From Bacillus sp. ISL-55 (lineage in GTDB: Bacteria > Bacillota > Bacilli > Bacillales > Cytobacillaceae), in assembly GCF_018613155.1 (NCBI RefSeq), contig NZ_JAGGQU010000007.1, positions 11,917-57,678 of the forward strand: 45,762 bases of DNA. The letters are read 5' to 3'. A program made the translations under genes and the position numbers. Below, one piece after another: positions 9,311-25,200 of this stretch (position 1 is its first letter; the number at the start of each line of letters is the position of its first letter). The notes beneath the pieces were generated by a model, which was given only the letters and a program-made list of their open reading frames with translations, ran no database searches and was not told where the DNA came from.

Positions 9311-9722
9311 ACGGACTTTGCGTTTACCGTTTTTCTCTTTCTTGGGTGTTTTCGGGCAATGCAGACACTCTGCTTTTACCCTTTTTCTCTTTCTTGTGCA
9401 TTTTGGGGTAATGCAACCGCTCTGCTTTTACCCTTTTTCTCTTTCTTGCGCATTTTGGGGCAGTGCAGCACCCCTGCTTTGACCCTTTTTCTCTTTCTTG
9501 CGCATTTTGGGGTAATGCAAACACTCTGCTTTTACCCTTTTTTTCTTTCTTGTGCATTTTCGAGCAATGCAGACTCTCTGCTTTTACCCTTTTTCTCTTT
9601 CGCTCCCATTTTGGGGCAATGCAGACACTCGCTTTTACCCAAAATTACTCTCTCGCTGTTTTTCGGGCAATGCAGCGATCCTCCTTTTACCAAAATTCAC
9701 TTCCGTTCATTGCTCGGGCAAT
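9311..9722. repeat. Tandem array 1: eight copies of a 50-52-bp unit
   Basis: Units begin at about 9311, 9361, 9413, 9465, 9517, 9569, 9621 and 9672. The five central ones are exactly 52 bp; the outer ones are 50-51 bp and more degenerate, mostly on the right. A unit reads roughly GCAGACACTCTGCTTTTACC, then a pyrimidine-rich stretch (CTTTTTCTCTTTCTTG), then TGCATTTTGGGGCAAT. Two inverted repeats recur: TGCATT/AATGCA around seven bases and GCAGA/TCTGC around three. Because 52 is not a multiple of three, reading frames drift from unit to unit, so the long open frames here on both strands are by-products. The array fills most of the 530-base convergent gap between the tRNA-Glu and yabR terminators. 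Confidence 0.92.
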
Positions 9723-19927: not shown

Positions 19928-20076
19928 CTCTTTTCTCAAACTTTGTTGCTATTGTTCACAAAATTAAAAAATATTAAGAGAAAAGAGCTTGCACACTTAA
20001 TACCGAACTGCAAAATAGATTTTTTTACGTTAAAATCGACTTTAGGATTTTAACAACAATCTTTACGAAAACAGCA
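19928..20076. repeat. A/T-rich dispersed element, copy A (upstream of mfd)
   Basis: About 150 bases match a second copy at 36999-37180, in the same orientation. Shared blocks are CTCTTTTCT, ACTTTGTTGCTATTG, AGAAAAGAG, CACTTAATACCGA/CAACTTAATACCGA-type text, CGTTAAAATCG, GATTTTAACAACAATC and TTACGAAAACAGC. Two inverted repeats are kept: CTCTTTTCT...AGAAAAGAG and GTTAAAATC-8-GATTTTAAC. It fills most of the fin-mfd gap. No coding frame is evident. Confidence 0.8.
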
Positions 20077-20136
20077 TTTAATAATGATGCCAATATACAA
20101 ACAGAAAAATGCTTTGGATGAGGAATCCAAAGCTTG

Positions 20137-20367
20137 TCAGTGAATTAGGTAGTCATGCTGGTGGTAGTCTGGGTTGCGTTCCAGGGCTTCTTGACAGTCT
20201 TCACAGATTGATTTTATATTGATATCACCATTACCTGCGTAAGAAACCATCTCCAGGCGCTCTTCCTCGGTCAGCTTATGCAGCCCTAAACTTTCACTGT
20301 GGACAGACAAACTGTCCAGTGAGCCCATCTTCGTGCCGCAATGACGGCAATGATAATGTATAGCCAT
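20137..20367 (-). CDS. fin: Anti-sigma-F factor Fin (YabK)
   Basis: Small forespore protein that inhibits sigma F to help the switch to sigma G. The 76-residue protein matches the family length. Two paired cysteines, Cys7/Cys10 (CRHC) and Cys55/Cys58 (CEDC), form a probable zinc site. An ATG five codons further upstream lies within its own ribosome-binding region (GGGAGGGACGGGC), so the start at 20367 is correct. It is located between pth and mfd, as in B. subtilis. Confidence 0.95.
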   Translation of the reverse strand: MAIHYHCRHCGTKMGSLDSLSVHSESLGLHKLTEEERLEMVSYAGNGDINIKSICEDCQEALERNPDYHQHDYLIH

Positions 20368-20397
20368 GCCCGTCCCTCCCAAATTAAGTCATTATCA

Positions 20398-20426
20398 TTA
20401 TTGACCCTTTGGCAGGAACTTATGCA
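20398..20426 (-). promoter_or_regulatory. Possible sigma-F promoter of fin
   Basis: Minus-strand TGCATA (20426-20421), 14 bases, then GGTCAATAA (20406-20398). The -35 fits sigma F well; the -10 has two mismatches to GGNNANAMT and the spacer is one base short. fin is sigma-F dependent in B. subtilis, which supports the reading. Confidence 0.35.
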
Positions 20427-20513
20427 CTTAGCCTATTGTATGATTCTTTTTTTACATTATATTACTTGATCAAAAGATTGGCATGTTTAATTCGCCATCT
20501 TTAATAAAATCTT

Positions 20514-21074
20514 CTATTGATTAAATGTATTCATAACTTCTAAGAAAGGCTTTTTCATCCATTCTTCACAAGCATCTGCAGACTTCATTACAGCTTCAGC
20601 CATCTGTTCGTTTTCTTCCGCTGTAAAACGTCCAAGAACCCAATCCGTGATCGCCATTCCATTTGTAGGCCGGCTGATGCCTACCCTGATTCGCTTGAAT
20701 TCCTGTGTTCCAGTATGGGCAATCGTCGACTTTATTCCATTATGGCCGCCTGCGCTGCCTTTTTGCCGCAATCGGATCCTGCCAGTCGGCATATCGAGGT
20801 CATCATAGATCACGACTAGATCCTCCACATCGATATCGTAAAAATCCATGACGGCCCTGATGGATTCACCAGAAAGGTTCATATAGGTTAAAGGTTTAAG
20901 CAGGATTACTTTTTCGCCGTCAACAAATCCCTTTCCATATAAGCCTTTATGTTTTGCCTGATCTAATGGGATATTCCACCGTTTGGATAACTCATCAATA
21001 ACTTCAAAGCCGATATTGTGCCTTGTTTTATCATATTGTCTTCCTGGATTCCCAAGTCCAACAAATAACTTCAC
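20514..21074 (-). CDS. pth: Peptidyl-tRNA hydrolase
   Basis: Frees tRNA from prematurely released peptidyl-tRNA (SpoVC in B. subtilis, essential). The 186-residue protein has the signature GLGNPG (6-11) with Asn9, the catalytic His19 in KTRHN, and the [14 protein letters not shown] and [11 protein letters not shown] segments. The start is GTG at 21072-21074, because AGGGG lies eight bases upstream; an in-frame ATG ten codons earlier would add residues not found in the family. It follows ctc after a terminator. Confidence 0.97.
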
Positions 21075-21169
21075 TTTCCACACCCCTAACCAAACGCATA
21101 TCATCTCTTCTAATCGCTAATTCCCCTTGATTCAGGGAAGCCAGAAAAAATTTCTATTTCTAATGTACA

Positions 21170-21209
21170 CGAAAACCGCAAAAGACGTAACCCTTTTCAG
21201 GCTACGTCT
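21170..21209 (-). terminator. Intrinsic terminator of ctc
   Basis: On the minus strand AGACGTA-G-CC and GG-G-TTACGTCT-type arms (21209-21201 with 21190-21183) form a stem around TGAAAA and are followed by TTTTGCGGTTTT. It starts 10 bases after the ctc stop. Confidence 0.75.
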
Positions 21210-21218
21210 ATTGCTGCT

Positions 21219-21851
21219 TTATTCTCCGCTCGCTTCAGTTTCTCTTCCTTCTTCATTTTCAGGCTCTCCTGGTTCTTGTTCTTCTCCAGAATTGATTTCT
21301 TCTTCCACTTTAGGAGGAAGGATTGAAACGACGACCGTGTTTTCGTCATCATTGATTTCGTAACTTCCTGTTTTGATATCTGCAAGTGTCAGGTTTTCAT
21401 TCACTTGCAGGTTTGTGATATCTACATCAATTGACTCGGGGATATTGCCTGGAGTCGATGTAATGTTCACTTCGTGGATCGGCTGCTGAAGTACGCCGCC
21501 ATCCTTGACACCTGCAGCATCGCCGACGAGGTTTACTCGGACGCTTGCATGTACCTTCGAGCTTTTATCGACAACAAGGAAATCAGCATGGAGAATCTCT
21601 TTCTTGATGTGATCTTCCTGATAATCTGTCAGCATGACGCTATGCTGGCTACCGCCCAAATCAAGAGAAATGACGCCATTTCGCCCATTTTCGCGGATAG
21701 TCTTCACAAACTCAATGCTGTCTACATAAATCGACTTACTATCGGTAGTCCTCCCATAGACAACTGCTGGAATATTGCCCTCCTGGCGTAATTTCCTCAA
21801 AGTAGAACGTTGAGTACCTGTGCGCTCATTTGCTTTCAATACTGCACTCAT
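21219..21851 (-). CDS. ctc: Ribosomal protein bL25 / general stress protein Ctc
   Basis: 5S rRNA-binding protein of the CTC (TL5) type, 210 residues. The N-terminal L25 domain (about 1-95) contains LRKLRQEGNIPAVVYG, and the C-terminal beta domain (about 100-185) contains VHASVRVNLVGDAAGVKDGG. The last 25 residues are very acidic. In B. subtilis ctc is induced by sigma B in stress and associates with ribosomes. AAGGGG precedes the ATG. Confidence 0.96.
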   Translation of the reverse strand: MSAVLKANERTGTQRSTLRKLRQEGNIPAVVYGRTTDSKSIYVDSIEFVKTIRENGRNGVISLDLGGSQHSVMLTDYQEDHIKKEILHADFLVVDKSSKVHASVRVNLVGDAAGVKDGGVLQQPIHEVNITSTPGNIPESIDVDITNLQVNENLTLADIKTGSYEINDDENTVVVSILPPKVEEEINSGEEQEPGEPENEEGRETEASGE

Positions 21852-21897
21852 GATTTTTATCCCCTTCCTATTTCGTAAGTACTTGTCTATATAAAAA

Positions 21898-21923
21898 ATG
21901 CCCCAAAACAGGAAGGTCTAAAC
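21898..21923 (-). promoter_or_regulatory. Candidate sigma-B promoter of ctc
   Basis: Minus-strand GTTTAG (21923-21918), 14 bases, GGGCAT (21903-21898). The sigma-B consensus is GTTTAA-N13-15-GGGTAT, so each hexamer has one mismatch. ctc is a classic sigma-B gene in B. subtilis. Confidence 0.6.
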
Positions 21924-22013
21924 GTTTTACTTTTTTTAGAGGCTCTATTAAACATGGCCGTTAGCGTTTCATTCCAGGCACTTTCACTCTCCGTGGGAAA
22001 CTGCTATAAATTC

Positions 22014-22733
22014 TTGACAGCTTTGACCCGGGGTCCTTGAAACCTGTCACAATAATGAGCTTTTCTTGACAGCTTTGACCCTGTTTCCTTGAAACCTGTC
22101 ACAATAATGAGCTTTTTTTGACAGCTTTGACCCCGTTTCCTTGAAACCTGTCACAATAACCAGCTTTTCTTGACAGCTTTGGCCCGGTTTCCTTGAAACC
22201 TGTCACAATTACGAGCTTTTCTTGACAGCTTTGACCCCGTTTCCTTGAAACCTGTCACAATAAACAGCTTTTCTTGACAGCTTTGGCCCTGTTTCCTTGA
22301 AACCTGTCACAATAATGAGCTTTTTTTGACAGCTTCGACCCTGTTTCCTTGAAACCTGTCACAATAATGAGCTTTTTTTGACAGCTTTGACCCCGTTTCC
22401 TTGAAACCTGTCACAATAAACACCTTTTCTTGACAGCTTTGGCCCTGTTTCCTTGAAACCTGTCACAATTACGAGCTTTTCTTGACAGCTTTGGCCCTGT
22501 TTTCTTGAAACCTGTCACAATAAACACCTTTTCTTGACAGCTTTGGCCCTGTTTCCTTGAAACCTGTCACAATTACCAGCTTTTCTTGACAGCTTTGGCC
22601 TCGTATCCTCAAAACCTGTCACAATAACCAGCTTTTCTTGACAGCTTTGGTCCTTTTTTCTTGAAACCTGTCACGATAACTAGCTTTTTTTGACAGCTTT
22701 GGCCCGGTATCCATGAAACCTGTCACAATAACG
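22014..22733. repeat. Tandem array 2: fourteen copies of an exact 52-bp unit
   Basis: Units start every 52 bases from 22014 to 22690 with no insertion or deletion. The consensus begins TTGACAGCTTTGRCCCNGTT and continues TCCTTGAAACCTGTCACAAT, then a short variable part (AATGAG, AACCAG, TACGAG, AAACAG and others) and CTTTTC or CTTTTT. Each unit can fold: TGACAG pairs with CTGTCA, and GTTTC with GAAAC around CTT, leaving an asymmetric bulge of about 10 bases. The outer units (1, 12, 13, 14) are the most diverged, as expected if the array grew from the middle. Reading frames shift by one base per unit, so it is not coding. It occupies most of the 1-kb prs-ctc gap, just upstream of the ctc promoter. 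Confidence 0.97.
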
Positions 22734-22750
22734 CTTTCAGATGGCATGAA

Positions 22751-22783
22751 AAAAGTGCAAGCGCCTTGACCAGCCCAGGCAGG
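22751..22783 (+). repeat. Fragment of the GC-rich dispersed element
   Basis: AAAGTGCAAGCGCCTTGACC followed by AGCCC matches the 5' end of the dispersed element (AAAGCGCAAGCGCCTTGGTC). Only about 30 bases remain, between array 2 and the prs terminator. Confidence 0.65.
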
Positions 22784-22807
22784 CCGTATGTAAAAGCAAT
22801 CAGAAAC

Positions 22808-22835
22808 AAGAGTAGGCTTGCCGCTTGGCAAGCCT
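22808..22835 (-). terminator. Probable terminator of glmU-prs
   Basis: Minus-strand AGGCTTGCC (22835-22827) pairs perfectly with GGCAAGCCT (22822-22814) around four bases and is followed by a poor U tract (ACTCTTGTTTC). It separates prs from array 2 and ctc. Confidence 0.65.
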
Positions 22836-22851
22836 GAATTCTCTTATAAAA

Positions 22852-23808
22852 TCAATCAAACAAAGTGCTGACAGACTGCTCTTCGTGGACGCGGATAATC
22901 GCTTCCCCAATCAATGGAGCAACAGACAGCTGATGGATTTTTTCAACGCGCTTTTCTTCTGCAAGCGCGATTGAGTTTGTCACAACCAGTTCTTTAATCT
23001 TGGAGTTTTCGATACGCTCAATTGCAGGACCTGATAATACAGGGTGTGTACAGCAAGCGTATACTTCAAGTGCTCCATTTTCAACTAATGCATTCGCAGC
23101 CAATGTAATCGTACCAGCTGTATCAATGATATCGTCAATCAAGATTGCAATCTTGCCTTCGATATTACCAACGATATTCATGACTTCTGCAACATTCGGC
23201 TTCGGACGGCGCTTATCAATGATGGCGATTGGCGCTTTCAGTCTTTCAGCCATCTTTCTTGCACGAGTAACACCGCCATGGTCTGGGGATACGATGACGA
23301 CATCTCCATTCAGTTCCTTGCTGTTAAAGTGGTCAGCAAGGATTGGCACGCCCATCAAGTGATCGATTGGAATATCAAAGAATCCCTGGATTTGCGGAGC
23401 GTGCAGGTCAAGCGTGATCACGCGAGTTGCGCCCGCCGTCTCGAGCAGGTTCGCCACAAGCTTCGCAGTGATTGGCTCACGAGCGCGTGCTTTACGGTCC
23501 TGTCTTGCATATCCGTAATAAGGCATAACAATATTGATTGTTTTAGCTGATGCACGCTTCAAGGCATCAATCATGATCAACAATTCCATGATGTTCTCAT
23601 TTACTGGAGAGCTAGTTGACTGGATGACATATACATCGCAGCCACGGATGCTTTCTTCAATGTTGATCTGGATTTCTCCGTCGCTGAACTGGGATACAGA
23701 GCATTTACCTAGCTCTACCCCAATTACTTTCGCAATTTCCTGTGCAAGTTCAACATTTGAGTTAAGTGAAAAAACCTTCAAATTTGGGTCAAGATACTGG
23801 TTTGACAT
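22852..23808 (-). CDS. prs: Ribose-phosphate pyrophosphokinase (PRPP synthase)
   Basis: Makes PRPP from ribose 5-phosphate and ATP for purine, pyrimidine, His, Trp and NAD synthesis. The 318-residue class I enzyme has the flexible catalytic loop [13 protein letters not shown] (100-112), the conserved [10 protein letters not shown] segment (174-183) and the PRPP loop [11 protein letters not shown] (223-233). GGAGG lies six bases before the ATG. It starts 18 bases after glmU and is co-transcribed with it. Several neighbours here (hpt, purR) use or sense its product. Confidence 0.98.
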
Positions 23809-23826
23809 TATGGACCTCCAAGACTC

Positions 23827-25200
23827 TTATTTCTTTACGTTCATTTTCCCTACATAATCTTCTTTGTTGACTTGACGAGCACGCGCAAGCGCTAGTGCTT
23901 CACCTGGAACATCTTCAGTGATCGTGGAACCAGCTGCTACATAAGCACCTTTCCCAATCGTCACTGGTGCAACAAGATTGGAATTACAGCCAATGAATAC
24001 GCCATCTTCAATCTTGGTCAAAAACTTGTTTTTGCCATCATAATTCACTGTGATTGAGCCGCAGCCGATATTCACATCAGCACCGACTTCTGCGTCACCG
24101 ATATAGCTAAGGTGTGAAGCTTTGCTTCCTTTGCCGAATACCGCTTTCTTAATTTCGACAAAATTGCCGATTTTCACTTCATCATCGATATCAGAATCTG
24201 GCCTGATATGCGCGAAAGGTCCGATATTGACTTCGGAGCCAATTTTGCTGTCAAAGGCAGCTGATTGGCGGATAACTGTATTGTTTCCAATTTGGCAGTT
24301 GCTGATTTCAGTATTAGGTCCAATCTGGCATTCAGAGCCGATGACGGTGCTGCCAGATAGTGTCGTACCCGGGAAAATAACCGTATCCTGTCCAACCTTC
24401 ACATCAGGTCCAATATACGTGTTATCAGGATCTATAAGCGATACGCCATTGCGCATATGATATTCGTTAATCCGCTTTTTCATCGTGCGTTCGGCTTCAG
24501 CAAGAGCAACCCGGTCATTGACACCAAGCGTCTCCGCGAAGTTATCAGTCACATAGGCAGATACGATTTCGCCCTGATTTTTCAGGATCTCGATGACATC
24601 CGGAAGATAGTATTCTCCCTGAACATTATCGTTTGATACATTCTGGATCGCCTCGAATAACATTTTGTTGTCGAAACAATATGTACCAGTGTTGATTTCA
24701 TTGATGCTTCTTTCCTGCTCGCTGGCATCCTTATGCTCGACGATTTTTTCAACAAAACCTTCCGCATTCCTGACAATCCTGCCATAGCCTGTTGGATTCT
24801 CAGCCCTCGCAGTCAGGATGGTTGCTTTGGCGTTTGTCTCTTCATGGTGCTTGAAAAGAGCTTCCATTGTTTCACCCTTGATCAGCGGAGTATCACCGCA
24901 GACCACGATTGTGACTCCCTCTTTGTCTGCAAGCATGTCCCCTGCCTGCTGTACAGCATGAGCAGTTCCGAGCTGTTCTGCCTGAAGGGCATACTGGCTA
25001 TCCTCACCGAGCTGATCCTTTACTTTTTCTGCTCCATGACCGACAATGGTCACGATTTCGTTTATATCAAGACTTTTCACCTGGTCAATTACATGCTGTA
25101 CCATTGGCTTTCCGCATACAGGGTGAAGAACTTTATACAATTTAGACTTCATTCTTGTTCCCTGACCGGCAGCTAAAATGATTGCATAACGATTAGACAT
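23827..25200 (-). CDS. glmU: Bifunctional GlmU: GlcN-1-P acetyltransferase / GlcNAc-1-P uridyltransferase
   Basis: Makes UDP-GlcNAc for peptidoglycan and teichoic acids (GcaD in B. subtilis). The N-terminal uridyltransferase (about 1-230) has [20 protein letters not shown] near residue 9, and the C-terminal half (about 250-455) is a left-handed beta helix of hexapeptide repeats carrying the acetyltransferase ([20 protein letters not shown]). Length 457 is normal. GGAGG lies seven bases before the ATG. It is first gene of the glmU-prs pair and has its own promoter. Confidence 0.98.

What the first reader, a model, noticed from the sequence alone, without database searches (positions are those of the whole stretch)
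22014..22733. Fourteen-copy, indel-free 52-bp array with a foldable unit between prs and ctc
Seen: 14 consecutive units with exactly 52 bases each. Inverted arms TGACAG/CTGTCA and GTTTC/GAAAC are kept in most units, with variation limited to a few positions. 52 bp is close to five turns of B-DNA, so every unit would present the same face. Known: in B. subtilis glmU-prs-ctc form one transcription unit; here the array and a terminator split prs from ctc. Inference: a phased protein-binding or topological site, a source of structured RNA, or an expandable spacer controlling ctc read-through. I do not recognise the element.
Basis: partly seen in the sequence, partly recalled or inferred. Interest (0 to 1): 0.75.

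Follow-up and report, generated by a model that had tools for sequence, protein, structure and literature searches.

The report
52-bp satellite array beside ctc
This is one of at least thirty related DNA satellites in a Bacillus relative whose repeat is nearly always exactly 52 bases long, a published but unexplained class; the added detail is that such arrays tend to carry mirror-image arms, point along the direction of DNA copying and lie between genes.

Summary
The array is real: TRF gives 22011-22732, period 52, 13.9 copies, no indels. It is not unique. The genome (Mesobacillus, near M. selenatarsenatis) has 49 BLAST matches to it in at least 30 places, plus 52-bp families of other sequence, one at 9315-9675 of this window. 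It belongs to the published 52-nt satellites of Bacillus, where B. selenatarsenatis is listed by name (PMC8161180). The kind is known; its function is open. Added here: (1) mirror arms in 14 of 19 sequence clusters and 14 of 27 published families; (2) the purine-rich strand is the leading strand in 42 of 45 scorable arrays; (3) 33 of 53 neighbouring gene ends have a terminator before the array, here between the prs terminator and a sigma-B-like ctc promoter; (4) about 11-17 times fewer indels per substitution than the spacer beside this array; (5) four sister genomes with 0-5 F1 cores show no 52-bp array in 192 kb. I favour a DNA-level role, a helically phased, replication-oriented ladder of protein sites, over RNA or ctc control. 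A neutral satellite with an unknown length ruler is nearly as likely.

The parts
22011..22732 (.). 52-bp satellite array, family F1: 13 full units plus a partial one; unit = GACAGSTTT-N15-AAASCTGTC-N19
   Evidence: TRF; units printed; core spacing
22014..22020 (+). first copy of the outer arm (TTGACAG); its mirror CTGTCA closes the same unit; both in 14 of 14 units
22814..22835 (-). terminator-like hairpin after prs, between prs and the array; kept in 19 of 20 readable genus spacers
21898..21923 (-). sigma-B-like ctc promoter GTTTAG-N14-GGGCAT, between array and ctc; a GTTTAGACC...GGGCAT element is in 20 of 20 readable genus spacers (sigma-B consensus recalled, not from a call)
   Evidence: sequence; relatives
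21967..21981 (-). short stretch GTGCCTGGAATGAAA like the end of a dispersed Bacillaceae intergenic repeat (recalled); found near 1 of 30 F1 arrays, so not taken as part of the satellite
21219..21851 (-). ctc (ribosomal protein L25 / general stress protein Ctc)
   Evidence: NCBIfam NF004133
22852..23808 (-). prs (ribose-phosphate diphosphokinase)
   Evidence: NCBIfam NF002618
9315..9675 (.). second 52-bp satellite of other sequence (family F2), after a tRNA-Met/tRNA-Glu pair and a terminator-like hairpin read by eye
   Evidence: TRF; sequence; tRNAs; further genome matches

Best explanation
The array is a member of the known 52-nt satellite class of Firmicutes, lodged in the gap between the prs terminator and the ctc promoter. 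Shown here: constant 52-bp unit, inverted arms in most sequence clusters, conserved arms with drifting loops in F1, polarity along replication, terminators before many arrays, and loss or lack of the class in some sister genomes as far as sampled. Inferred: it works as double-stranded DNA. Each 52-bp unit (five helical turns) presents the same arm pair on the same face, so the chromosome carries some dozens of ladders of phased sites, oriented with the fork, on which a protein (unidentified) could assemble cooperatively and organise or mark the nucleoid. It does not act on ctc in particular.
For: Class membership: PMC8161180 lists B. selenatarsenatis with 49 tandem repeats of 51-53 nt, and says its repeats are shared with B. 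boroniphilus and B. subterraneus; Ctc of M. selenatarsenatis is 98% identical to ours. Length: 366 of 384 single unit steps are exactly 52; indel events to substitutions 18:2515 in arrays against 155:1272 in the neighbouring orthologous spacer at like divergence. Arms: 14 of 19 clusters and 14 of 27 published families have inverted arms at p<0.05 against shuffles. Within F1 the arms hold 1.88 and 1.98 bits per column against 0.49 for the loop over 30 arrays. Polarity: purine-rich strand is the leading strand in 42 of 45 scorable arrays (50 looked at, 5 ambiguous), including 12 of 12 between convergent genes; leading-strand purine 0.601 in arrays against 0.527 in other non-coding DNA. Place: terminator between gene end and array in 33 of 53 cases against 1.6 expected from shuffles; 1 of 28 F1 arrays between divergent genes against 91 of 430 array-free G009 spacers (Fisher p 0.026). 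Class-wide lack: F1 core in 18 of 21 genus genomes; in four with 0-5 cores, no 52-bp array of any family in 192 kb.
Against: No binding protein was found; SbcD and Y1 transposase do not track the trait. One genome holds several families with different arms, hard for a single sequence-reading protein. Half-sites are 24 and 28 bp apart centre to centre, awkward for a simple dimer. Five of 19 clusters and 13 of 27 published families show no significant arms. The polarity could partly be mutational strand bias. Genes often end in terminators anyway, and gene ends without arrays were not compared. On G009 alone, 2 of 16 arrays lie between divergent genes, no clear avoidance. Copy number at this site varies from 0 to about 14 between genomes, as expected of unselected DNA. 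The indel comparison is partly biased by repeat finding and rests on one locus.
Confidence: 0.4

Rival explanations
1. Neutral or near-neutral satellite. Hairpin-prone sequence is duplicated at the fork by slippage with a built-in length ruler, and arrays survive where they harm nothing, in gaps after terminators and away from promoters.
For: Place between genes and often after a terminator, copy number 0 to about 14 at the same site between genomes, polarity with replication, inverted arms as slippage aid, near restriction of the F1 core to the genus (1 of 172 other family genomes).
Against: I know of no ruler that gives 52 for differing sequences; arms are far better kept than loops over 30 arrays; indels are rarer than substitutions predict.
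Confidence: 0.35
2. RNA element: the array is transcribed from prs read-through and folds into a chain of hairpins acting as small RNA, sponge or mRNA stabiliser.
For: 52-nt satellites are reported to be transcribed in B. coagulans RNA-seq (PMC8625621); five units of the minus strand fold a little better than shuffles (z -1.81, 7 of 200 shuffles as good).
Against: A terminator precedes the array at 33 of 53 gene ends; the purine strand follows replication where it can be told from the gene; no G-U excess and a standing G-G mismatch in the stem; no Rfam match at E<=1; plus strand z -1.25.
Confidence: 0.12
3. Local regulator of ctc or prs: the array tunes read-through or sigma-B expression of ctc.
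For: It lies in that spacer in 12 of 21 genus genomes, with one or two units left in 2 more.
Against: Promoter element kept in 20 of 20 and prs hairpin in 19 of 20 readable spacers, with or without the array; 6 of 21 genus genomes lack it there and one contig ends too early to tell; like units occur beside many other genes.
Confidence: 0.05
4. Mobile or selfish element spread by an unknown enzyme that copies 52-bp hairpin units.
For: Many dispersed copies and amplification in one genus, inverted arms.
Against: No match in 72,556 plasmid and 50,697 phage records at distant-blastn sensitivity; Y1 transposase does not track. Target duplications were not looked for.
Confidence: 0.08

Closest known systems
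52-nt tandem repeats (satellites) of Bacillus and other Firmicutes, Subirana and Messeguer (PMC8161180; PMC8625621)
   Same: Unit 52 +/-1, non-coding, several families per genome, short signals and their reverse in one unit, same species group; alkalitelluris family 71_52_7 has arms TTCGGACAGCTTT/AAAGCTGTCTGAA, like part of F1.
   Different: The parts of the two papers that I read report no statistics on arms, replication polarity, terminators, indel depletion or class-wide lack in sister genomes; the 2020 J Bacteriol paper could not be read.
BIME-2 / REP arrays of enterobacteria (recalled, no call)
   Same: Intergenic, palindromic, repeated, at ends of transcription units.
   Different: No constant tandem period of 52 is known to me for REP; a Y1 (RAYT-type) transposase does not track here.
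CRISPR arrays (comparison made in PMC8161180)
   Same: Regular repeats with conserved and variable parts.
   Different: Neighbouring units share the variable part; dozens of arrays per genome; cas genes were not looked for here.
20-21-nt satellites of Bacillus (PMC8161180)
   Same: Second constant-length class in the same genomes (19 of 89 non-coding arrays sampled).
   Different: About two turns, not five; arms not tested.

Membership tests
52-nt satellites of Firmicutes | tandem unit of 52 +/-1 nt, constant length | tested here: met
52-nt satellites of Firmicutes | non-coding, not a protein repeat | tested here: met
   52 is no multiple of 3; array lies between ctc and prs. A 70-aa ORF overlaps its end (22619-22831), taken as chance
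52-nt satellites of Firmicutes | several sequence families of the same length in one genome | tested here: met
   F1, F2 and further families
52-nt satellites of Firmicutes | short signal and its reverse complement within the unit (paper: 'often') | tested here: met
   TGACAG/CTGTCA in 14 of 14 units
52-nt satellites of Firmicutes | reported in this species group | tested here: met
   B. selenatarsenatis rows of Tables 1 and 4; 98% Ctc identity
52-nt satellites of Firmicutes | transcribed (shown for B. coagulans) | not testable with these tools
   no RNA data for this species
CRISPR array | unique spacers between identical repeats | tested here: not met
   whole 52-bp unit repeats, loops are alike between units
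REP/RAYT element | cognate Y1 (RAYT) transposase in array-bearing genomes | tested here: not met
   no match in G006 and G015 (173 and 194 F1 cores), matches in G008 and G012 (0 cores)
structured RNA family | pairing kept by covariation or G-U on one strand | tested here: not met
   F1 stem counts; no Rfam match at E<=1

The most novel reading that the evidence does not exclude
Some Bacillaceae carry an undescribed chromosome-wide system in which a trans-acting factor reads helically phased, arm-bearing 52-bp ladders oriented along the replication fork, a bacterial counterpart of satellite-based chromatin. Species that lose the factor lose all 52-bp satellites at once, whatever their sequence.
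Probability: 0.15. Interest if true: 0.85.

Novelty: new member of a known kind. Interest (0 to 1): 0.45.

Why it matters
Why bacterial satellites of differing sequence keep a unit of exactly 52 bp is an open published puzzle (PMC8161180). The mirror arms, fork-oriented polarity, place between genes and apparent class-wide lack in some sister genomes point to a DNA-level, replication-linked cause. They also give a gene hunt a contrast to start from: Mesobacillus genomes with hundreds of F1 cores against sister genomes with 0-5.

Tried and rejected
RNA folding of five units on either strand: weak, and stem statistics speak against RNA. Rfam on 20000-24500: nothing at E<=1. Plasmids and phages, distant blastn: nothing. 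Hairpin nuclease SbcD as the gene whose loss lets palindromic arrays live: matches in 21 of 21 genus genomes, over the cut-off in 20. Y1/RAYT transposase: 18 of 21, does not track the arrays. A dispersed intergenic element as source of arrays: end pattern beside 1 of 30. A universal GACA/TGTC core: in 10 of 27 published families and not among the 12 most enriched 4-mers, so rejected as universal. Whole-unit dyad score: 17 of 51 arrays at p<0.05; the local-arm score was used instead, on 19 cluster representatives. A ctc tree was wrong because some loci lay in reverse; redone, where several branches have low support. A first core pattern with N16 found nothing; the right spacing is N15.

Limits. 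The G000 sample blocks were chosen around F1 arrays, so counts that include them are enriched for F1 and, for gene orientation, for convergent pairs. Of 58 non-coding arrays with period 51-53, 7 were left out because period or TRF consensus was not 52 long. Three of the 19 clusters carry F1-like arms, and some published families are near copies of one another, so neither set is fully independent. Seven larger unit steps (90-260) are skipped units; counted as indels they would raise indels per substitution to about 0.011. The comparison tail is one locus in 11 genomes, its 55 pairs are not independent. Leading strand was taken from GC skew or, for G009, from the place of ctc near an assumed origin. 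Genes were called by a simple ORF script with different length limits. The 53 gene ends come from G009 and G000 blocks, and gene ends without arrays were not compared. The four array-poor genomes were sampled only in the ctc region (192 kb in all), and G011, the comparison, elsewhere. The 1 of 28 figure comes from the 30 best BLAST arrays; on G009 alone 2 of 16 arrays lie between divergent genes.

Full report
What is there. The array is as described. TRF gives 22011-22732, period 52, 13.9 copies, 0% indels. The 13 full units and one partial unit all carry TGACAG and CTGTCA; the inner GTTTC is in 9 of 14 and GAAAC in 13 of 14. The unit is GACAGSTTT-N15-AAASCTGTC-N19. The mirror axes of such a tandem repeat fall 26 bp apart. 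The neighbours are ctc and prs. The array lies between a terminator-like hairpin after prs at 22835-22814 and a sigma-B-like promoter, GTTTAG-N14-GGGCAT on the minus strand at 21923-21898 (sequence; consensus recalled).

It is not alone. The own genome gives 49 BLAST matches to the array, in at least 30 separate places, and 364 exact F1 cores. A second 52-bp array of other sequence lies in this window at 9315-9675, with relatives elsewhere in the genome. The sample was 0.8 Mb of a complete sister genome, 20 blocks of the own genome chosen around F1 arrays, stretches of eight other genomes and 28 named loci. In it, 54 of 89 non-coding tandem arrays with at least 2.7 copies have period 52, 4 have 51 or 53, and 19 have 20-21. 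Where TRF marks nothing, 7-mers in Mesobacillus non-coding DNA still recur at lag 52 (81 times against a median of 15 per lag).

What it is. PMC8161180 (parts 1-4 of 5 and the tables section read) describes this class: 52-nt tandem repeats of constant length and variable sequence in about 30% of the Bacillus species studied, often with short signals and their reverse within a unit. It lists B. selenatarsenatis, with 49 repeats of 51-53 nt. Our genome is of that group (98% identity of Ctc). PMC8625621 (parts 1-2 of 3 read) reports transcription in B. coagulans. Both leave the function open. The 2020 J Bacteriol paper is not held. So the kind is known.

Length. Of 384 single steps between neighbouring units in 51 arrays, 366 are exactly 52, 9 are 51, 7 are 53, one each 50 and 54; seven larger steps are skipped units. 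Neighbouring units differ at 12.7% of sites, yet indel events number 18 to 2515 substitutions. In the orthologous spacer next to the array, at 14.5% divergence, they number 155 to 1272. Repeat finding favours indel-poor arrays, so I read this as 11- to 17-fold with that caveat.

Arms. I grouped the 51 arrays into 19 sequence clusters, three of them F1-like. Fourteen of 19 have inverted arms stronger than 95% of shuffles, with differing arm sequences, for example TGACAG, TTCGGACAAAT, GTCCGAAT, GGGCCTTCAT and ATGACGGA. In the 27 families of the published table 14 do; the other 5 and 13 do not. The alkalitelluris family 71_52_7 has F1-like arms. Within F1, over 30 arrays of the own genome, the arms hold 1.88 and 1.98 bits per column and the loop 0.49; the units were collected by their arms, which flatters them. 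The sixth pair of the stem is G-G in 312 of 417 units and the rest shows no G-U excess (38 G-U, 46 A-C). That is how a DNA recognition sequence behaves rather than a folded RNA.

Direction and place. Of 50 arrays, 45 have a clear purine strand; in 42 it is the leading strand. Two of the three exceptions lie in a block whose skew is -0.01. Arrays between convergent genes agree 12 of 12, between divergent genes 3 of 3, beside lagging genes 3 of 4. Arrays exceed the background skew (purine 0.601 against 0.527). A terminator stands between gene end and array in 33 of 53 cases, 1.6 expected from shuffles; gene ends without arrays were not compared. Of 28 F1 arrays with both flanks called, 19 lie between co-directional, 8 between convergent and 1 between divergent genes; in G009 spacers without arrays the figures are 268, 71 and 91. 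On G009 alone, arrays number 11, 3 and 2, no clear difference.

History at this site. Of the 21 genus genomes, 12 have an array of 2.9-13.9 copies in the prs-ctc spacer, 2 keep one or two units, 6 have none and one contig ends there. The promoter element is in 20 of 20 readable spacers and the GGCTTGCC-type hairpin in 19 of 20, L049 being the exception. The ctc tree puts most array-rich genomes together, with low support in parts. Genome-wide, the F1 core is found in 18 of 21 genus genomes and 1 of 172 others of the family. Genomes with 0-5 cores (G002, G008, G012, G014) show no 52-bp array of any family in 192 kb around ctc, whereas 100 kb of G011, from another region, show two, neither of them F1. 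This suggests, on a small sample, that the whole class comes and goes together, as if one factor were needed. SbcD and Y1 transposase are not that factor.

Verdict. Known class, ordinary member, unexplained function. The best reading is a DNA-level, helically phased and fork-oriented site ladder (0.4), with a neutral satellite with a replication ruler close behind (0.35). Searches of the paper library for earlier reports were made; word starts palindrom- and hairpin do not occur in the main text of PMC8161180. I cannot say that the added features are absent from papers outside that library.

Noticed in passing
window 9315-9675: Second 52-bp satellite (GGGYAATGCA...TGCTTTTACCC) after two tRNA genes; further matches elsewhere in the genome.
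   Followed up: partly
L062 5802-5997, L070 2632-3162: A third 52-bp family (CGGTCACAAG...CATGTGCCCGTGAA) about 4 kb upstream of ctc in relatives; TRF lists no array at the matching place in the window.
   Followed up: no
L070, L066: Contigs titled Chryseobacterium sp. ISL-80 and Cytobacillus oceanisediminis 2691 carry Mesobacillus-like ctc and F1 arrays; the record names look wrong.
   Followed up: no
L051 (G008): An extra stretch lies between the sigma-B-like promoter and ctc, a different place from the satellite.
   Followed up: no
Mesobacillus non-coding DNA (G000 and G009 samples): Peaks of repeated 7-mers at lags 21, 42, 63 and 84, as expected of the 21-nt class, beside the peak at 52.
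   Followed up: no
F1 arrays, sixth arm position: On the purine-rich strand the left arm is mostly GACAGG and the right arm AAAGCTGTC, so most units have one GACAGC and one GACAGG half-site pointing opposite ways.
   Followed up: partly
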